Assembly (NCBI GenBank): GCA_003220315.1
Contig: QHSA01000060.1
Coordinates: 1 to 37,070, forward strand
DNA from: Candidatus Rokuibacteriota bacterium
GTDB taxonomy: Bacteria; Methylomirabilota; Methylomirabilia; Rokubacteriales; CSP1-6
Reading direction: 5' to 3'
DNA length: 37,070 nt
The position numbers and the translations under genes were made by a program. Under the pieces are notes generated by a model, which had not been told where the DNA came from, did not search any database, and saw only the letters and a list, made by a program, of their open reading frames with translations. Positions 26,435 through 36,836 of the stretch are shown piece by piece (positions within the stretch are counted from its first letter, which is position 1; every line of letters starts with the position of its first letter).

Positions 26435-27694
26435 TCATCGCCACCGCTCCACGAGGTAGCGCTTGTGCCGCTCGAAGGCCTCGCCCACTCCGTCCAGATG
26501 GGTCTCGGCGGCCCCGACGTCGCGGTCCCGCGTCGCGACGACGAACGCGGCGGTGCGGCCGAGGTAGAGCGGGACGAAGGAGCGCAGCAGGTGCTCACGG
26601 TAGACGACGTTGTAGTGGTGGCCGAGCGCGAAGTCGTAGACCACCCGCGCCCACAGCTCGTCCGGGAACCGGAACCGCGCCGCGCTGCCCGCGTCGAGGC
26701 TCAGGACGTCGCCGAGCGTCTCGGGCGCCAGGATGTGCTCCCAGATCGTGCCGAGATCCCGCAGGCCGCGCCGGAACGCGCCCACCATGCGGTCCACGTC
26801 GAGCGCCACGGGCTCCACAGACGACGGCGCCGGCGCGCCCGCGGTGGGGACCGGCTCGCTGCCACGGATGTCGAGCCACAGGTCGTCGTATCCGCCCATG
26901 ACGGCAAAGAGTCCCCCGACCGCCTGAACGACCATCGTCGGGAGGTCCGGCGTCAGGGTCCGCGACGTCGCGCGCCGGTGGCCGAGCCACGCCTCCCAGA
27001 CGGCGAAGCCCTCGGCGATCGCGGTCCCCTCGACCCAGAGGTCGGTCTGGTTCGTTCCGGGCGCGGGCCACCGCGGGTCGGCGAGCAGCCGATCGAGCAG
27101 CCCAGCGGAGAGCGCCCGGGCGCCCGCCAGCGGCTGGTGCAGCCGTCGTCCGAAGAGCGCCCGGACCAGCGGCGCCAGCACGAGATTCGTGATCGTGCCG
27201 TCGTACCGGTGGCGCGCGTACACCGGGACCACGAGGTCGGCCTTCTGCTCGAGGACGGGACGGAGGAGACGCTCGAGCCACTCGTCGGCCGCCGAGGTCA
27301 CGTCGGCCTCGAGCAGGCCGAGGCCGCGCGCACCGAGCCGCCGGGCGACGGCAAAGGTGAGACGGAGCGCGGCGCCGCGCGCGGGCACGCCGTGGAAGGG
27401 CACGGCGACGCGCTGGGCGAGGGGCGTCGCGTGACGGGCGCGGACGAGGGGGAGCCCGGCCGCCGCGAGTAGATCCGGCGTGCCGTCCGTCGAGCCGGCG
27501 TCGGCGTTGATCAGCACGGCCCGGGCGCCGGCGAAGTGACGCTCGAGACCCGCGCGGACGACCTTGGCCACGGCCGGGACGGTCTCCGCGTTGTTGTACG
27601 TGAGCACGCCGATCGCGATCTCGCACGGTGCGACACCCTCGAGCTCAGGCTCGACGTCGGGCGGCAGCGCGAACCCCGGGGCGCGGTCCGTCAT
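26435..27694 (-). CDS. GT-A fold glycosyltransferase of unknown acceptor
   Basis: 419 residues. [22 protein letters not shown] (25-46) and [15 protein letters not shown] give a GT2-like nucleotide-sugar fold. [31 protein letters not shown] and [13 protein letters not shown] recall GpgS (GT81) and mannosylglycerate synthase-type enzymes, but the likeness is only partial and the usual DxD is replaced by EAD (LLEADVTS). Between the TreT-like gene and treS, overlapping both contexts (ATGA with the former), it probably makes a related glucosyl solute. Substrate unknown. A C-terminal helical part (about 310-419) ends in KRYLVERWR. Confidence 0.78.
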
Positions 27695-28881
27695 CGCGCG
27701 AGGTGGATCATGAGCGCCAGGAAGTCCGTGAGGTGGCGCGTGATGAGAAACGACCGCCGCACGTGCTCTCGGCCGGCCGCGCCCATCCGGGGGATCAGCT
27801 CCGGATTGTTGAGGAGGTGGCGGATCCGGAACGCCGCGCCCTCGACCGTGTAGACCGTGTAGCCCGTCGCGTTGGGGATGATCTGCTGCGCCAGACCGCC
27901 GGCGTAGCCACCGATCACGGGCTTGCCCTTCCACATCGCCTCGGCGGGGCCGAGCTCGAACCCCGCACGCACCGACTTCTGCAAGACGATCGTGGCCGCG
28001 CGCTGGAGCGCGTTGATCTGACGGTACGCCTCCGCCGGCAGCTCGAGCACGAGGACGTCGGGGTCCTCGCGGGCGGCCTCCCGAAGCTCGTTTCCGATCT
28101 CGACCCGATCCGGCTCGTCGCCGCCCGTGCCCGCCAGGACGAGCCGCACGTCGTGGTGCTTCTTCACCAGCCGATAGGCGTTCACGACGCCGATCGGGTC
28201 GTCACCGTGGGTGAACGATCCGATCTGAACGAGCAGCGGTTTGTCCCGGACCACACGGAGCGACGTCAGGATGTCCGTGAGCTCGCGCGGCGACAGCTCG
28301 CGGTTCTTCTCCGACAGCGGGTCGATGGACGGCTCGACGACGTACATCGGGATCCCGAGGCGGCCCTCGAATCCCGGCAGCGAGAAGACCGCGGCGTCGT
28401 ACTGGTCGGCGAACTGCCGGAAGAAGGACCAGGCGGCCGGACGCGCCGACGAGCAGTCGAAATGGCAGCGCCAGACCCACCGGCCGTCGGTCCGGTGGGT
28501 CACGAGGCTCGCCGGCTGGACGTCGTGGACCAGGACGAGGTCGGCGTCGAGCGCGAGCTTCTTGGCGTTCACCCGGTTCATCTCGACCCAGTGGGCGAGC
28601 CCCTCGTCGCTGAGCACGCGCTCCGCGCCCTCGAGCGTCGCCTGGAGCGTGCGCGCGGTCGCATAGTAGGCCTGATCGCCCCCCGTGATCTCCCAGCTCG
28701 TGTCGACGCCCAGGTCGCTCAGGATCGGGACGGCCGTGCGGAGGATCTCGGCTACGCCGCCGCCCAGCCGACCGCCGGTCAGGTTGAGGAACCGTCGACC
28801 CCGCACGCGCTCGGCCAATTTCTGGATCACGTCCACGGCGCCCGGCGGCGCCACCTGACGGTAGTCGTCGATCCGGCTCAC
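27691..28881 (-). CDS. treT: TreT-like trehalose glycosyltransferring synthase (GT4)
   Basis: 396 residues. The opening FLNLTGGRLGGGVAEILRTAVPILSDLGVDTSWEI (31-65) is the TreT signature, with the glycine loop GGGVAEIL. The GT-B C-terminal half has QIGSFTHGDDPIGVVNAYRLV, LVLAGTGGDEPDR and the nucleotide-sugar motif VRAGFELGPAEAMWKGKPVIGG. Characterised TreT joins NDP-glucose and glucose to make trehalose directly. GTG 28881 overlaps the DUF5752-like stop and its own stop overlaps the next ATG, so it is tightly coupled on both sides. A related retaining GT4 with another acceptor is possible. Confidence 0.88.
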   Translation of the reverse strand: MSRIDDYRQVAPPGAVDVIQKLAERVRGRRFLNLTGGRLGGGVAEILRTAVPILSDLGVDTSWEITGGDQAYYATARTLQATLEGAERVLSDEGLAHWVEMNRVNAKKLALDADLVLVHDVQPASLVTHRTDGRWVWRCHFDCSSARPAAWSFFRQFADQYDAAVFSLPGFEGRLGIPMYVVEPSIDPLSEKNRELSPRELTDILTSLRVVRDKPLLVQIGSFTHGDDPIGVVNAYRLVKKHHDVRLVLAGTGGDEPDRVEIGNELREAAREDPDVLVLELPAEAYRQINALQRAATIVLQKSVRAGFELGPAEAMWKGKPVIGGYAGGLAQQIIPNATGYTVYTVEGAAFRIRHLLNNPELIPRMGAAGREHVRRSFLITRHLTDFLALMIHLAR

Positions 28882-29543
28882 CCCCGCTCCTCCTCCAGCG
28901 CCCGGTCGACGAGCCTCAGGAGCCGCCCGCGGACCCGCTCGAGGGTCGTCAGGTACGGGTCGATCCGCTCGAATCGCTCGGCGAGCGCCGGCAGCTCGAG
29001 CGCGCCCCGGAGCCACTCGGCGAAGTCACCCGCACGGCGGCCACCCCGCGCCCGCGCCTCGACCGCGTGCAGATAGATCGCGGTCGCGTCGGCGGCCGCG
29101 AGGCCGGCGCGGAACTCCGCGAGCGTCGTCGCCGCGAGACCGAGCTCCACCTCGACGAGGTGGGAGCGCTGGAAGTGGAACGCCCGATCGAACTCGACAC
29201 GGAGGTCGCCGCCGCGCGCCCGGAGATGATCCTGGAGGATCGTCACGAGATGCTCGCGCAGCGCCTCGACGGTCGGGAACGCGAACGGATCGACGACGGC
29301 CAGACGCTCGGCGAGCGCGCGGTCGCCGATCTCGAGCGCGGCCCACCGCGCAAAGTCGTTGCCGTACGCGGTGGTGAACGGCCGGTGGCGGAGGAAGTAG
29401 CCGAAGGTGTGGAAGAAGACGGAGTCGGCCGGCACCTCGGCCACGCGATGCATCAGCTCGCGCTCGTCGAGCGCGTGCATGTCGAGCGTCTGTCGCAGCT
29501 CGACGCAGCCCACGAAGAGGAATGGGTGCGCGGCGGTACGCAT
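28878..29543 (-). CDS. DUF5752-like protein
   Basis: 221 residues, soluble and largely helical. Distinctive parts are FVGCVELRQTLDMHALDERELMHRVAEVP near the N-terminus, VFFHTFGYFLRHRPF near 45, and YGNDFARWAALEIGDRALAERLAVVDPF. I match this to DUF5752 by the histidine-rich FFHTFxYFLRHRPF segment, with moderate certainty. Four His residues near 45-55 could bind metal. Its start is 36 bases after otsB and it overlaps the TreT-like gene (GTGA), so it probably acts with the trehalose enzymes. Function unknown. Confidence 0.78.
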   Translation of the reverse strand: MRTAAHPFLFVGCVELRQTLDMHALDERELMHRVAEVPADSVFFHTFGYFLRHRPFTTAYGNDFARWAALEIGDRALAERLAVVDPFAFPTVEALREHLVTILQDHLRARGGDLRVEFDRAFHFQRSHLVEVELGLAATTLAEFRAGLAAADATAIYLHAVEARARGGRRAGDFAEWLRGALELPALAERFERIDPYLTTLERVRGRLLRLVDRALEEERG

Positions 29544-29579: not shown

Positions 29580-30353
29580 TCAGCCGAGCGCGACGGCGAG
29601 TCGGCGGAGCACGGCCTGCATCTCCCTGACGTCACGCACGCGGTAGTTCGCGGCGCTCGGTCCGTTGCCGACTCGGACGGTCAGCGCGCGCCCTTTCAGC
29701 GCGGCGAACGCCGCCTCGTCGGTGGCGTCGTCGCCCGCGTAGAGGACGACGCGACTGCCACGCGGGAGCGTCCGTCCGGCGCGGTGCACGATCCAGCGCG
29801 CGGCCTCGCCCTTGCTCCAGCGGACCCGTGGGACGAAGTCGAAAACCTCGCGACCGGCGATGAGCGCGAGGCCGGGGACGCCGCGGAGCACGCGCGTCAC
29901 GAGCTCGCGCACCGCGCCGCGCCGCGACGGCGCGACCCGCCGGTAGTGGAGGCTCACCGCGAGCCCCTTGAACTCGACGCGCGAGCCCGGGATCGCGTCG
30001 GCGGCGGCGGCCAGCGCGCGCCGCGCCGTGACGAGGCTGGTGGCGCGGACCCCCGGGTGACGGAAGGCGAGACCGCCGCCCCGGATCTCCAGCCCGTGGC
30101 ACCCACCGTAGATGACGTCGTCGAGGGCGACCCGGGCCCGGACGTCCGCCAGCGCGCGCCCCGAGAGGATCGCCAGGCGGGCCCGGTCGCTCGTCGCCAG
30201 ACGCTCGAGCGTCGTCCGCACCGACGGTGCCAAGACCGCCGCCTGCGGCGACGGCACGATCGGGGTCAGCGTCCCGTCGTAGTCGAGGATGGCCACCAGA
30301 CCGGCGCCGCACGCGAGCTCGCGCTCGAGACGCGTGAGGAGACGGGGCGGCAC
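29580..30353 (-). CDS. otsB: Trehalose-6-phosphate phosphatase
   Basis: 257 residues, HAD superfamily. DYDGTLTPI with nucleophile Asp24 and Asp26, the LAILSGRAL motif II region, the cap with YGGCHGLEIRG, RWSKGEAARWIV (motif III Lys) and YAGDDATDEAAF (motif IV acids). It removes phosphate from trehalose-6-phosphate. GTG 30353 follows the otsA stop by two bases, so the two are co-translated or coupled. Confidence 0.96.
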   Translation of the reverse strand: MPPRLLTRLERELACGAGLVAILDYDGTLTPIVPSPQAAVLAPSVRTTLERLATSDRARLAILSGRALADVRARVALDDVIYGGCHGLEIRGGGLAFRHPGVRATSLVTARRALAAAADAIPGSRVEFKGLAVSLHYRRVAPSRRGAVRELVTRVLRGVPGLALIAGREVFDFVPRVRWSKGEAARWIVHRAGRTLPRGSRVVLYAGDDATDEAAFAALKGRALTVRVGNGPSAANYRVRDVREMQAVLRRLAVALG

Positions 30354-30355
30354 GG

Positions 30356-32590
30356 TCAGGACGCCTTGACTCCCGGCGTCTCGACCGGGATTCGGGAGAG
30401 CTCGCTCAGGAGGAGCCCGGCCCAGCGGTAGATGTTGTGCTCGCTCACGACGTGGCGCATCCGCGTCATCCGCGCGCGCCGTTCGTCCTTGGGCATCTCC
30501 AGCGCGGTGCGGATCGCCTCGGCGGTCCCGGCGAGGTCGTACGGGTTGATGATCAGGGCGTCCCGCAGCTCGTGGGACGCGCCCGCGAACCGGCTCAGGA
30601 TGAGGACGCCGTCCTCGTCGTCGCGAACGGAGACGAACTCCTTGGCGACGAGGTTCATGCCGTCGTGGAGCGAGGTGACCATGCAGAAGTCCGCGTGGCG
30701 ATAGTAGGACCACACCTCCCGGTGCTCGTGGTGACCGGAGAGGTACACGATCGGCCGCCAGCCCTTGGTCCCGAGCCGCTGGTTCACCTCGCGGACGGTC
30801 GCCTCGACCTCGAGCGCGAGCTCCGCGTACCGCTTGATGGAGGTCCGGCTGGGCGCGCCGAGCTGGACGAACACCACGCGCTCGCGGTACTCGGGATAGC
30901 GCTCGAAGAACCACTGGAGCGCGCGGAAGCGCTCGGGGAGTCCCTTGGTGTAGTCCACCCGCTCGACGCCGACGCCGAGGAATTCGGCGGAGATCCCGAG
31001 CTCGCGCCTGAGCTCCTCGCGCGTGCGCTGCGGCGGATCGTCCACGAACTCGGGCGCGACACTGATCGGGAACGGCTTGACGGCGGTCACGCGCTCACCG
31101 CGGGTGACCGCGAAGTGTTCCCAGTCGATCCGTGTTTCGAGCGTGCGATCCACCGTCTCCAGAAAATTGTTGCAGTAGTACTGCGTGTGGAAGCCGACGA
31201 GATCGGCGCCCAGCATGCCGGCGAGCAGCTCCTGCTGCCACGGGCAGATCGCGAAGGCTTCGAAGTTCGGCCAGGGGATGTGCCAGAAGAGCGCGACGCG
31301 CGCATCGGGCCGCTCCGCCTTGACGAGCGCGGGCAGCGGCGCGAAGTGGTAGTCCTGGATCAGGACGAGCGGCTCCTCGGCGTTCTTGATCTCGTCGAGC
31401 ACCGTCCCGGCGAACCGGCGGTTCGCCTCGAGGTAGCTGGCCCAGTCGTCGGGCCGGAACACGGGCCGCGTGTGCACGATGTGGCACAGCGGCCAGAGCC
31501 CCTCGTTTGCGAACCCGTAGTAGTAGCCGTGCTCCTCCGCCGCCGTCAGCCACACCCGGCGCAGCGTGTAGCGCGGGTCGTCCTCCGGCACGGCGAGCCG
31601 CCCGCGCGCGTCCGCGGTCTCCCGGTCGGCGTCACCGCTCCCGTGAGCGACCCACACGCCGCCGCACGCACGCATCATCGGATCCATCGCGGTCACGAGC
31701 CCGCTGGCGGGCGTCAGCGTCTGGATCCGTCCCCCCTTTCGCACGTGGCTCACGGGCTCGCGGTTGGACACGACGACGAGCAGCCGGCCGCCGAGGCGGA
31801 GGTTGACGAACTGCTTGAGACGCTCCTCGGTCCAGACGGATTCGCCCGCCAGACGCAGGGCAGCCTCGTGCTCGGCCGCCGCGCGGGCCCGCTGCATGCT
31901 CCGCGCGAGCCCGGCGACCTCGCGCGCGAGCGGGCCGAAGACGTTCGTGTCGGGCACCTCCGGGGGCGGCACGTAGCGCCCGGCGCGGAGCGCCTTCGTC
32001 CACTCCGACATCTTCGCCATCGGGGCCGTCACGCTGCTGCGGACGAGGACCAGCGCGATGAGCGAGATCACGAGTGCCAGCGCGAGGAACCGGAGCGCGT
32101 TGCGCCACCAGAGGTCCCACTCCGCGGCCTGCAGGTGCTCGGCGTCGAGGAACACCGCCAGCGCGCCCACCGGCCGCTCGTCCTGCGTGAGCGGCGCCGC
32201 GTACACGTACGCCGGTCGGGCACCGACAACGCGAAAGCCCTGGCTCACGGCGTTGGTGGCGACGGCGTCGGTCACCTCGGGGAGCGACGGGGGGAGAAGC
32301 TTGGCGACTTCGGGGGTCGCGACCATCAGGCCGGCGAAGCGGTCGTAGACCGCGATCCCACGCGTCGGCCGGCCGAACTTCTTGAGGATGCGCTCGACGC
32401 CGACCGTCGAGCCGCGCGCGACCTGAGGCTCGATCGCCTCCTTGAGCCCCTCGCCCACGAGGACGGCGCGGCGCTTCAGATCGTCGAGGAGCCGCTCGCG
32501 CTCCTCGCGGATCTGGAGGAACGCGAACCCCCCGATGACGATCAGCACCGAGAGCCAGATGGCGCCGACGAGGCGAATCGTGAATTTCAT
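30356..32590 (-). CDS. otsA: Membrane-anchored OtsA: sensor/HAMP-like N-terminus fused to trehalose-6-phosphate synthase
   Basis: 744 residues against about 470 for a normal OtsA. Residues 8-27 are a membrane helix; 28-165 are an extracytoplasmic segment (PTRGIAVYDRFAGLMVATP...AYVYAAPLTQDERPVGALAVFLD) resembling a sensor domain; 166-183 are a second helix; 184-236 are a HAMP-like linker (SVTAPMAKMSEWTKALRAGRY...). The GT20 domain (268-735) is complete: VAHGSGD, HFAPLPALVK, FWHIPWPNFEAFAICPW, GFHTQYY, GVERVDYTKGLPERFRA and DGMNLVAKEFV. It makes trehalose-6-phosphate from NDP-glucose and glucose-6-phosphate at the membrane. ATG 32590 is needed for the first helix. An inner-membrane location with inside GT20 is inferred. 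Confidence 0.94.
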   Translation of the reverse strand: MKFTIRLVGAIWLSVLIVIGGFAFLQIREERERLLDDLKRRAVLVGEGLKEAIEPQVARGSTVGVERILKKFGRPTRGIAVYDRFAGLMVATPEVAKLLPPSLPEVTDAVATNAVSQGFRVVGARPAYVYAAPLTQDERPVGALAVFLDAEHLQAAEWDLWWRNALRFLALALVISLIALVLVRSSVTAPMAKMSEWTKALRAGRYVPPPEVPDTNVFGPLAREVAGLARSMQRARAAAEHEAALRLAGESVWTEERLKQFVNLRLGGRLLVVVSNREPVSHVRKGGRIQTLTPASGLVTAMDPMMRACGGVWVAHGSGDADRETADARGRLAVPEDDPRYTLRRVWLTAAEEHGYYYGFANEGLWPLCHIVHTRPVFRPDDWASYLEANRRFAGTVLDEIKNAEEPLVLIQDYHFAPLPALVKAERPDARVALFWHIPWPNFEAFAICPWQQELLAGMLGADLVGFHTQYYCNNFLETVDRTLETRIDWEHFAVTRGERVTAVKPFPISVAPEFVDDPPQRTREELRRELGISAEFLGVGVERVDYTKGLPERFRALQWFFERYPEYRERVVFVQLGAPSRTSIKRYAELALEVEATVREVNQRLGTKGWRPIVYLSGHHEHREVWSYYRHADFCMVTSLHDGMNLVAKEFVSVRDDEDGVLILSRFAGASHELRDALIINPYDLAGTAEAIRTALEMPKDERRARMTRMRHVVSEHNIYRWAGLLLSELSRIPVETPGVKAS

Positions 32591-32653: not shown

Positions 32654-32944
32654 CTATTTCTTCCCGCGGCCCACGAGCCTCTGGAGCTTGAGGTTCATCT
32701 CCTTGACCGACGTCAGGTCTTTCTCGGCCGCCGCCAGGCGGTCCTGGGTCTCCTTGAGCCGGGTTTCCAGCCCCCGCGCGTCGGTGCGAGCGGCGTCGAG
32801 CTGCTGCTCGAGCCCATCCGCGCGCTTGCGCGCGGCGTCGAGCTCCCCCTGAACGCGCTGAGGGGGCATGCCCCACCAGAGGAACCCCACGAGGGCACCG
32901 ATCAGGATCCCGACGATCGTGCCAATCACGACGAGTCGGTTCAC
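32654..32944 (-). CDS. Small membrane-anchored coiled-coil protein
   Basis: 96 residues: one N-terminal helix (LVVIGTIVGILIGALVGFLWW, 4-24), then a long coiled coil (ELDAARKRADGLEQQLDAARTDARGLETRLKETQDRLAAAEKDL) and a basic end. It has the same plan as the protein at 161-457 but no clear sequence identity. GTG 32944 follows the binding-protein stop by 15 bases. It may be a tether or scaffold; it lies between a binding protein and the membrane-anchored OtsA. Confidence 0.75.
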   Translation of the reverse strand: MNRLVVIGTIVGILIGALVGFLWWGMPPQRVQGELDAARKRADGLEQQLDAARTDARGLETRLKETQDRLAAAEKDLTSVKEMNLKLQRLVGRGKK

Positions 32945-34744: not shown

Positions 34745-36079
34745 ATGATTTCTCATCGCGTGATGCGTTCGGGTATTCTGGCGGCTGCTTGGGTCGCCCT
34801 CGCGTGCACGGTCGCCGCTGGCCCGGTCCGCGCCGACGAGACCTGCAACTCACCCTACACCGCCAAGCTCATCAAGGGTCAGGAAGATTATGTCTACGTC
34901 TGGGCCCTGGGCGTCGAGGGGCTCGGGGACGGCTCCGACAAGCTGGTGACCGTGGACGTGCACCCGAAGTCGAAGAGCTACGGGAAGGTGATCGCCTCCG
35001 TGTCGGTCGGATCCCGTGGCGAGGCCCACCACATGGGCTTCACCGACGACCGGCGCTTCATCTGGGCGGGCGGGCTCTCGGAGGCCAAGATCTACGTCTT
35101 CGACATCGCCACCGATCCGGCGAAGCCCAAGCTCGTCCAGACGATCACCGACCTGGCCGACAAGACCGGGTATCTCGGTCCGCACACCTACTACGCGCTC
35201 CCCGGACGGATGCTGGTGCAGGCGCTCTCGAACACCAACGACAAGGGCGGCGTCACCGGCATGGCACTCTACAACAACAAAGGCGAACTCATCGCCTCCT
35301 ACAAGATGCCGACCGACGGCGGCGGTGACGGCTACGGCTACGATCTGGCGGTCAATCCGAAGAAGAACATCCTGCTCACGTCGAGCTTCACCGGCTACAC
35401 GAACTACATGCGGTCGCTCTGGGAGCTCGTGAAGGACGCGGAGGCGATGAAGCGCTTCGGCAACACCATGGTCGTGTGGGATCTGAAAGCCATCAAGCCG
35501 AAGCGGATTCTCAGCGTGCCCGGCGCGCCGCTGGAGATCCGCTGGTCGCTCAACCAAGCAGACAACTGGGCCGTCACAGCGACCGCGCTGACATCCAAGA
35601 TCTGGCTCGTCAAGCAGGATGGCAAGGGCGAGTGGCAGGCGAAGGACGTGGCGACCATCGGCGATCCGGCGAAGGTCCCGCTCCCCGTCGACATCAGCAT
35701 CACCCGTGACGGCAAGGGGCTGTGGGTCAACACGTTCATGGACGGAACCACGCGCTACTTCGATCTGAGCAACCCGGAGGCGCCGAGGCAGACCTACGCG
35801 AAGGTGACCGGCAAGCAGGTCAATATGATATCGCAGAGCTGGGACGGCAAGCGCGTCTACATCACCTCGTCGCTGCTGGCCAACTGGGACAAGCTCGGTG
35901 CCGAGAACGAGCAGTTCCTGCGCGGCTTCGTCTGGAACGGCAAGGAGCTCAAACAGGTCTTCGAGGTGGATTTCACCAAGGAGACGCTCGGCCGCGCCCA
36001 CCACATGAAGCTCGGCTCGAAGGCACTGCGTACGACGGCAGCGGACGCGGCGGCGCTGGAGCGGCTCGCACGGCGTTGA
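34745..36079 (+). CDS. mtoX: Methanethiol oxidase / selenium-binding protein 56 family
   Basis: 444 residues with a signal peptide (MISHRVMRSGILAAAWVALACTVAAGPVRA), so periplasmic. The mature start DETCNSPYTAKLIK and the segments GPHTYYALPGRMLVQALSN, GYGYDLAVNPKKNILLTSSF, PGAPLEIRWSLNQADN and ITRDGKGLWVNTFMDGTTRYFDL match the SBP56/MtoX beta-propeller family. Bacterial MtoX is a copper-dependent enzyme oxidising methanethiol to formaldehyde, hydrogen sulfide and hydrogen peroxide. ATG 34745 has GGAAGGAG upstream. The SCO gene four bases downstream supports MtoX rather than an unrelated SBP56 protein. A mauG gene, also common in such clusters, is not seen before the window ends. Confidence 0.9.
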   Translation: MISHRVMRSGILAAAWVALACTVAAGPVRADETCNSPYTAKLIKGQEDYVYVWALGVEGLGDGSDKLVTVDVHPKSKSYGKVIASVSVGSRGEAHHMGFTDDRRFIWAGGLSEAKIYVFDIATDPAKPKLVQTITDLADKTGYLGPHTYYALPGRMLVQALSNTNDKGGVTGMALYNNKGELIASYKMPTDGGGDGYGYDLAVNPKKNILLTSSFTGYTNYMRSLWELVKDAEAMKRFGNTMVVWDLKAIKPKRILSVPGAPLEIRWSLNQADNWAVTATALTSKIWLVKQDGKGEWQAKDVATIGDPAKVPLPVDISITRDGKGLWVNTFMDGTTRYFDLSNPEAPRQTYAKVTGKQVNMISQSWDGKRVYITSSLLANWDKLGAENEQFLRGFVWNGKELKQVFEVDFTKETLGRAHHMKLGSKALRTTAADAAALERLARR

Positions 36080-36083
36080 GCGC

Positions 36084-36836
36084 ATGGCCGTGAGGGGCGG
36101 GGGCCGTCGCGCCATTGCCTCCGCCGCGGCCAGGGTGCGCCAGCGCACGGGCGCGGCCGCGCTGCTGGCTTGGTTCGTCTGTGCTACCTCGGCGTCCGCG
36201 CATGCGGGCGAGCCGCTTCCCGCGCTCGACTTCGATCCCCCGCCTCCCGGCAGCTATACGTTGCACCGGATCATGGCGGCGCCGGACGGCGCGGTTCTCG
36301 GTATCGACGGGCGCAGCCAGCGGCTCTCTCAGTTCACACGCGACCGCATCACGCTGCTCGGGTTCATCTACACGACGTGCAGCGACCCGGGCGGCTGTCC
36401 GCTTGCGTACCGCGTGTTCGATGCGATGAAGCAGGCGATCGAGACCACCCCCGCCTTGCACGACCGCGTGCGGTTCGTGACATTGTCGCTCGATCCGGCG
36501 CGTGACACGCCGGCGATCATGCGTCAGTACGCCGGCAGCCGCCCGAGCGACACGAGTGGTGGATTGCGCTGGTATTTTCTCACGACCGGCTCGGCGCACG
36601 AGCTCATGCCGCTGGTCGAAGGCTTCGGCCAGGACATCCGCTACACGATCGACCGGTCGAACGGCAAGCCGCGGTGGGAGCTGTCGCACGTTCTCAAGCT
36701 GTTCTTGATCGACGCCGCGGGTTTCATCCGGGAGATCTACACGTCCGCCTTCCTCCACCCGCGAACGGTGCTCAACGACATTGAAACGCTCCTCATAGAG
36801 GGCAGCGGCCCCGGGATCGAAGCCGCGGGTCGGTGA
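36084..36836 (+). CDS. SCO1/SenC-family copper chaperone
   Basis: 250 residues. A long basic N-terminus leads into a hydrophobic signal segment (GAAALLAWFVCATSASAHA), then a thioredoxin-like fold: RITLLGFIYTTC (Cys99), Cys105, VRFVTLSLDPARDTP and ELSHVLKLFLID (His202, the third copper ligand). The cysteines are spaced CX5C (CSDPGGC) rather than the usual CX3C, a two-residue insertion. SCO proteins deliver copper to periplasmic or respiratory enzymes. Its position directly after mtoX suggests it matures MtoX. It overlaps the TonB-receptor start (GTGA). Confidence 0.92.
   Translation: MAVRGGGRRAIASAAARVRQRTGAAALLAWFVCATSASAHAGEPLPALDFDPPPPGSYTLHRIMAAPDGAVLGIDGRSQRLSQFTRDRITLLGFIYTTCSDPGGCPLAYRVFDAMKQAIETTPALHDRVRFVTLSLDPARDTPAIMRQYAGSRPSDTSGGLRWYFLTTGSAHELMPLVEGFGQDIRYTIDRSNGKPRWELSHVLKLFLIDAAGFIREIYTSAFLHPRTVLNDIETLLIEGSGPGIEAAGR

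What the first reader, a model, noticed from the sequence alone, without database searches (positions are those of the whole stretch)
30356..32590. Trehalose-6-phosphate synthase fused to a membrane sensor-like and HAMP-like region
The GT20 enzyme follows two membrane helices enclosing about 138 extracytoplasmic residues and a HAMP-like linker, the layout of chemoreceptors and sensor kinases. HAMP linkers pass conformational signals from outside to a cytoplasmic output. Here the output would be osmolyte synthesis itself, so osmotic or envelope stress might control the enzyme directly.
Basis: partly seen in the sequence, partly recalled or inferred. Interest (0 to 1): 0.75.

Follow-up and report, generated by a model that had tools for sequence, protein, structure and literature searches.

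The report
Trehalose-making enzyme built like a receptor
A soil bacterium (a Rokubacteria/Methylomirabilota relative) makes trehalose phosphate with an enzyme whose front end is a receptor-like module (an outside sensing domain, two membrane helices and a HAMP-like relay), and the same design occurs in many bacterial phyla, so the cell may control this stress sugar directly from outside, which nobody seems to have tested.

Summary
The gene is on the minus strand (ATG at 32590, 744 aa). Residues 271-732 are a GT20 trehalose-6-phosphate synthase (E=1e-117) with all OtsA active-site positions I checked conserved. Residues 1-268 are two TM helices around ~139 residues, then a HAMP-like region. Family profiles and a predicted structure identify the outside part as a single Cache domain: WalK Cache E=2.4e-4, and a fold match to WalK over TM1-Cache-TM2-HAMP (TM-score 0.76). 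The linker matches bona fide HAMPs of the same genome (hhalign 96%, E=4e-9), although this protein alone misses Pfam's HAMP model and the DExG motif is mostly lost. The N-terminus is conserved: complete fusions occur in 36 of 60 relatives and in Acidobacteriota, Nitrospirota, Omnitrophota, Elusimicrobiota, Bacteroidota, Gemmatimonadota and Patescibacteria, usually as the only GT20 gene, often in a TPS-OtsB-DUF5752-TreT neighbourhood. Cache-less, HAMP-less, TM-only and soluble variants also exist, so mere membrane tethering is a live rival. Most likely it is a one-protein receptor-enzyme: an outside signal acts through Cache, TM2 and HAMP on trehalose-6-phosphate synthesis. That step and the signal (osmotic or otherwise) are inferred. 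I found no published description.

The parts
30356..32590 (-). whole gene: Cache-TM-HAMP-like-GT20 trehalose-6-phosphate synthase, 744 aa, ATG 32590, stop 30356-30358
32516..32572 (-). TM1 (residues 7-25), continuous with long helix 2-58
32141..32509 (-). extracytoplasmic single Cache (PDC-like) domain, residues 28-150
   Evidence: WalK Cache E=2.4e-4; WalK, CitA, DctB folds
32042..32098 (-). TM2 (residues 165-183)
31877..32035 (-). HAMP-like relay, residues 186-238 (AS1 186-202, connector, AS2 ~215-238)
31787..31870 (-). conserved linker 241-268 with W253 and L258 invariant in the fused forms; belongs with the catalytic clade, since forms without the sensor begin near residue 250
30395..31780 (-). 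GT20 trehalose-6-phosphate synthase catalytic domain, residues 271-732
29580..30320 (-). downstream trehalose-phosphatase (OtsB); start approximate
28878..29543 (-). DUF5752 protein of the conserved neighbourhood
27691..28890 (-). TreT-like trehalose synthase of the conserved neighbourhood; start approximate

Best explanation
It is a membrane receptor-enzyme. A single Cache domain outside the membrane, two TM helices and a divergent HAMP relay are covalently joined to a trehalose-6-phosphate synthase, and a trehalose-phosphatase (OtsB) is encoded next door. A ligand or physical change sensed by the Cache/TM part shifts TM2 and the HAMP helices, and the change passes through the conserved linker to alter GT20 activity, so trehalose synthesis is set directly by conditions outside without a kinase/regulator relay. 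Shown by computation: the anatomy, homology of the modules, conservation of active-site positions, conservation of the fusion across phyla, operon context. Inferred: dimerisation, conformational coupling, and the nature of the signal (osmotic/ionic, an organic anion as for CitA/DcuS, or envelope stress).
For: GT20 and active site. N-terminal modules: Foldseek to WalK TM1-Cache-TM2-HAMP E=4e-12, TM-score 0.76, and CitA Cache TM-score up to 0.79; PDB profile hits to WalK Cache, Tsr HAMP, Af1503 HAMP, DcuS; hhalign to own-genome HAMPs 96%; Pfam sCache_3_2 in 27 and HAMP in 12 of 67 N-termini. Conservation: 36/60 relatives carry complete fusions; many phyla; 31/81 genomes of the Acidobacteriota class sampled and about 20/78 Omnitrophota; N-terminal and catalytic distances track each other, Mantel rho 0.74, best of 999 permutations 0.24; N-terminal dN/dS well below 1. 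Sole GT20 in its own genome and in 16 of 20 GT20 genomes sampled from this clade. OtsB within 3.5 kb in about 70 of 100 loci, some redundant.
Against: No activity, ligand or dimer data. The window protein alone has no Pfam HAMP hit. The DExG motif, reported as critical for signal input in membrane-proximal HAMPs (PMC3570549), is mostly lost. Related enzymes without Cache (L127, L131, L135, L137, L171), without a recognisable HAMP (L169), with one TM (L155, L175) or apparently soluble (L041-L044, L173, L174) exist, so the enzyme need not be regulated this way everywhere. The quick catalytic tree is weakly resolved.
Confidence: 0.6

Rival explanations
1. Membrane tether only: the N-terminus places T6P synthesis at the inner membrane (near a transporter or the other trehalose enzymes), and the Cache/HAMP features are relics without a signalling role.
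For: Variants keep a membrane anchor while losing Cache (L127, L131, L135, L137, L171) or have a single TM instead (L155, L175); the HAMP is divergent and lacks DExG.
Against: The Cache domain is under purifying selection, retains recognisable Cache signatures over many phyla and co-varies with the catalytic part; a plain anchor would not need a ~140-residue folded domain of near-constant length (129-151).
Confidence: 0.25
2. Inside-sensing device: HAMP, TM helices and the cytoplasmic linker respond to ionic strength or membrane tension, with the Cache domain only modulating.
For: Cache-less forms keep the TM hairpin and HAMP-like region; osmosensing from the cytoplasmic side has been proposed for other HAMP receptors such as EnvZ (own knowledge).
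Against: Most sampled membrane-fused members keep an outside domain; no direct test.
Confidence: 0.12
3. Not a trehalose-6-phosphate synthase but another GT20 sugar-phosphate transferase (for example glucosylglycerol-phosphate synthase) with the same membrane control.
For: Scores below the NCBIfam OtsA equivalog cut-off (430 vs 565 bits); a tryptophan of OtsA's 'FGW' is histidine (H316) here.
Against: The GgpS model scores far lower (277 vs cut-off 569); the OtsA active-site positions checked are conserved; neighbours are trehalose-phosphatase, a TreT-like synthase, an alpha-amylase-family enzyme that looks like TreS, and a maltokinase-like protein.
Confidence: 0.08
4. Assembly or gene-call artefact joining two genes.
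For: None found.
Against: The same single open frame occurs in 36 of 60 independent relatives and in many phyla, including a complete Elusimicrobiota chromosome record (L112) and the named strain Niastella soli MAH-29 (L095).
Confidence: 0.005

Closest known systems
WalK/YycG sensor histidine kinase (Cache-HAMP input module)
   Same: TM1-single Cache-TM2-HAMP layout; best fold match over 264 columns (9a5d is an integrative/deep-learning model, 5is1 and 4ywz are crystal structures of the Cache domain); the NCBIfam WalK model hits the N-terminus weakly.
   Different: Output is a GT20 glycosyltransferase; no kinase domain.
CitA/DcuS-type periplasmic sCache sensors
   Same: Cache fold, rmsd about 2.5 A, TM-score up to 0.79 to CitA; Pfam sCache_3_2 in 27 of 67 members.
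   Different: Ligand pocket and ligand not established here; no kinase.
HAMP domains of Tsr, Af1503 and EnvZ
   Same: Helix-connector-helix after TM2; profile hits; hhalign 96% to own-genome HAMPs.
   Different: DExG motif mostly absent; output is a biosynthetic enzyme, not a kinase, MCP, cyclase or phosphatase, named as the main outputs in PMC3570549.
OtsA, soluble trehalose-6-phosphate synthase (E. coli, Mycobacterium)
   Same: GT-B fold, active-site positions, OtsB next door.
   Different: OtsA is soluble; this clade has a sensor module, scores below the OtsA equivalog cut-off and carries H316 in place of an OtsA tryptophan.
L040/L169/L170/L176-type TM-fused TPS (found here)
   Same: Same catalytic clade (L040 in the tree) with TM1-outside-TM2 in front.
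   Different: N-terminus poorly alignable to P0002 and without a Pfam HAMP hit: a second input module.

Membership tests
GT20 / trehalose-6-phosphate synthase | Glyco_transf_20 domain above curated cut-off | tested here: met
   394 bits vs 32.5
GT20 / trehalose-6-phosphate synthase | OtsA donor and acceptor site residues (OtsA R9,G22,Y76,W85,D130,H154,R262,K267,R300,D361,E369, numbered without the first Met; list from own knowledge) | tested here: met
   aligned to R277,G297,Y357,W366,D413,H437,R544,K549,R582,D643,E651
OtsA equivalog (NCBIfam TIGR02400) | score above 564.85 bits | tested here: not met
   429.7 bits: a related subfamily, not an OtsA equivalog
GT20 / trehalose-6-phosphate synthase | makes trehalose-6-phosphate | not testable with these tools
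   needs biochemistry; OtsB next door is supportive
single Cache (sCache) sensor domain | N-terminal long helix plus PAS-like sheet between two TM helices | tested here: met
   models and Foldseek, PDB profile, Pfam in 27/67 members
single Cache (sCache) sensor domain | binds a ligand | not testable with these tools
   no ligand data
HAMP domain | ~50-residue helix-connector-helix after a TM helix with profile-level similarity to HAMP | tested here: met
   (family level)
HAMP domain | Pfam HAMP score above cut-off for this protein | tested here: not met
   no hit for P0002; 11 of 36 close and 12 of 67 distant members hit at weak E-values
HAMP domain | DExG motif of membrane-proximal HAMPs | tested here: not met
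   G kept in 28 of 36 close relatives but DE lost; across phyla G in 17 of 67
HAMP domain | parallel four-helix bundle in a dimer | not testable with these tools
   only monomer models could be run

The most novel reading that the evidence does not exclude
A widespread, undescribed class of one-protein transmembrane receptors whose direct output is synthesis of a compatible solute: an outside signal gates T6P synthesis through Cache and HAMP, with no phosphorelay, second messenger or transcription, in at least eight bacterial phyla or candidate phyla.
Probability: 0.5. Interest if true: 0.85.

Novelty: new variant of a known kind. Interest (0 to 1): 0.7.

Why it matters
HAMP receptors are known to drive mainly kinases, chemoreceptors, cyclases and phosphatases (PMC3570549). 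Here a biosynthetic glycosyltransferase sits in the output position, and in most sampled genomes of this clade it is the only GT20 gene. If regulated, it would be a direct, very fast route from outside conditions to osmolyte level, and a clean assayable output for studying how HAMP relays act on an enzyme. It also means that trehalose synthase genes in many soil and groundwater lineages should not be read as plain OtsA.

Tried and rejected
Pfam on the single protein gave no HAMP or Cache hit, so family profiles were needed. Chance fusion or artefact was rejected by conservation. W253/L258 as a sensor-specific coupling element was rejected, because forms without the sensor begin near residue 250 and several keep a similar linker. 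Literature searches for TPS with HAMP or a membrane sensor found nothing relevant, but only open-licence PMC papers are held. A plasmid search found only catalytic-part matches. The catalytic tree is the quick version, not the finished careful search. The DExG motif and the Pfam threshold were counted against a canonical HAMP. The operon count includes duplicate contigs and a few forms without the sensor, so 70/100 is approximate.

Full report
WHAT IS THERE. The gene lies on the minus strand of the window, ATG at 32590, stop at 30356-30358, 744 aa. The start is shared by its relatives. Residues 271-732 match Pfam GT20 with E=1.2e-117, and the model's best fold matches are solved trehalose-6-phosphate synthases of Mycobacterium, E. 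coli and Candida. Aligned with E. coli OtsA read from NC_000913, the donor and acceptor positions I checked are kept: R277, G297, Y357, W366, D413, H437, R544, K549, R582, D643-GMNL, E651 (the list of OtsA residues is from my own knowledge of the OtsA structures). It is the only GT20 gene in the genome.

THE N-TERMINUS. Hydropathy finds two TM segments, 7-25 and 165-183, with 139 residues between. The single protein gives no HAMP or Cache hit in Pfam. I therefore collected relatives. 36 of 60 related genomes carry the complete fusion, two more are cut by contig ends, one is frame-shifted, and four carry only forms without the sensor (the counts are mine from the match table). Thirty-six full-length proteins (A1), and 67 N-termini from many phyla (A4), were aligned. 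Individually, 27 of the 67 N-termini hit Pfam sCache_3_2 (best 1.3e-8) and 12 hit HAMP (best 5.5e-5). As a profile they hit the WalK Cache domain (2.4e-4), Tsr TM2-HAMP (4.2e-4), Af1503 HAMP (0.02) and, weakly, DcuS and NarQ among PDB sequences. AlphaFold2 on A4 (pLDDT 86) gives a long helix through TM1, an alpha/beta Cache domain, a helix through TM2 into AS1, a loop, and AS2. Foldseek ranks a full-length WalK model first (E=4e-12, TM-score 0.76 over 264 columns), then crystal structures of WalK Cache, DctB, amino-acid chemoreceptors and CitA. The 9a5d entry is an integrative/deep-learning model, so the crystal structures are the firmer evidence for the Cache part. A profile of the TM2-HAMP stretch matches ten bona fide HAMP stretches of the same genome with 96% probability, E=4.4e-9.

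DEPARTURES. Across 67 N-termini the HAMP proline (P190, 62/67) and E224 (65/67) are kept, but the DExG motif is mostly lost. That motif is reported to matter for signal input in membrane-proximal HAMPs (PMC3570549). So it is HAMP by descent and probable fold, not a textbook HAMP.

SELECTION AND CO-INHERITANCE. Between same-genus species dN/dS in the Cache and TM2-HAMP parts is 0.05-0.34, against 0.12-0.19 for GT20. Over 72 sequences, N-terminal and catalytic distances correlate (rho 0.74, best of 999 permutations 0.24).

DISTRIBUTION. In evenly drawn samples it is in 31 of 81 genomes of an Acidobacteriota class and about 20 of 78 Omnitrophota. In 16 of 20 genomes taken from this clade (18 with the full layout, 2 with the Cache-less form) it is the only GT20; two of the exceptions could be seen to hold a second GT20 frame of another length, and one a longer bifunctional-looking one.

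VARIANTS. Within the same catalytic clade there are forms with TM hairpin and HAMP-like region but no Cache (L127, L131, L135, L137, L171), forms with a different outside domain and little or no recognisable HAMP (L040, L169, L170, L176), forms with one TM (L155, L175), and apparently soluble forms that begin near residue 250 (L041-L044, L173, L174). The quick catalytic tree puts forms without the sensor inside the sensor-bearing group. This swapping and loss of input modules is what receptors do, but it also shows the enzyme can work untethered, and it keeps the tether-only rival alive.

CONTEXT. The gene is followed by trehalose-phosphatase, DUF5752 and a TreT-like synthase, then a glycosyltransferase-like protein, an alpha-amylase-family enzyme that looks like TreS, and a maltokinase-like protein. 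TPS with OtsB, and often DUF5752 and TreT, recurs across phyla (about 70 of 100 loci have OtsB within 3.5 kb, duplicates included).

MECHANISM. Shown: modules, homology, conservation, context. Inferred: the protein dimerises through HAMP; a signal at the Cache/TM part changes AS2 and the linker and thus GT20 activity. The signal is unknown. Osmolarity is a fair guess given the product but has no direct support. I put about 0.6 on real transmembrane regulation, 0.25 on tethering only.

NOVELTY. The parts are known; the combination of a Cache-HAMP receptor with a biosynthetic osmolyte enzyme appears undescribed in the papers I could search, which exclude most subscription journals. A related one-TM record (Aminobacter plasmid) is annotated simply as trehalose-6-phosphate synthase, so the layout is probably hidden under that name in databases.

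Noticed in passing
window 28878-29543 (-) and loci: DUF5752, function unknown, is repeatedly placed between trehalose-phosphatase or TPS and a TreT-like synthase across many phyla; no paper in the held library mentions it.
   Followed up: partly
L040:3831-6059, L169:581-2773, L170:647-2884, L176:718-3012: A second kind of two-TM input module, without a Pfam HAMP hit, is fused to the same TPS clade.
   Followed up: partly
window 34745-36079 (+) and 36084-36836 (+): Methanethiol oxidase MtoX (730 bits) followed by a SCO1/SenC protein.
   Followed up: no
window 26435-27550 (-): A protein in the trehalose cluster with no Pfam hit and only a weak match to glucosyl-3-phosphoglycerate synthase.
   Followed up: no
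window 32654-32944 (-): A 96-aa protein with a predicted membrane start and coiled coil just upstream of the TPS; among the loci checked, found only in the nearest relative's.
   Followed up: partly
G176:C101:6632-8140 and G195:C30:18837-20126: GT20 domains inside open frames of 2747 and 7499 aa in Omnitrophota genomes.
   Followed up: no
L048:7043-7580 and L062:4041-6004: Fragments of a second TPS copy beside an intact one, and a frame-shifted fused TPS, in two relatives.
   Followed up: no
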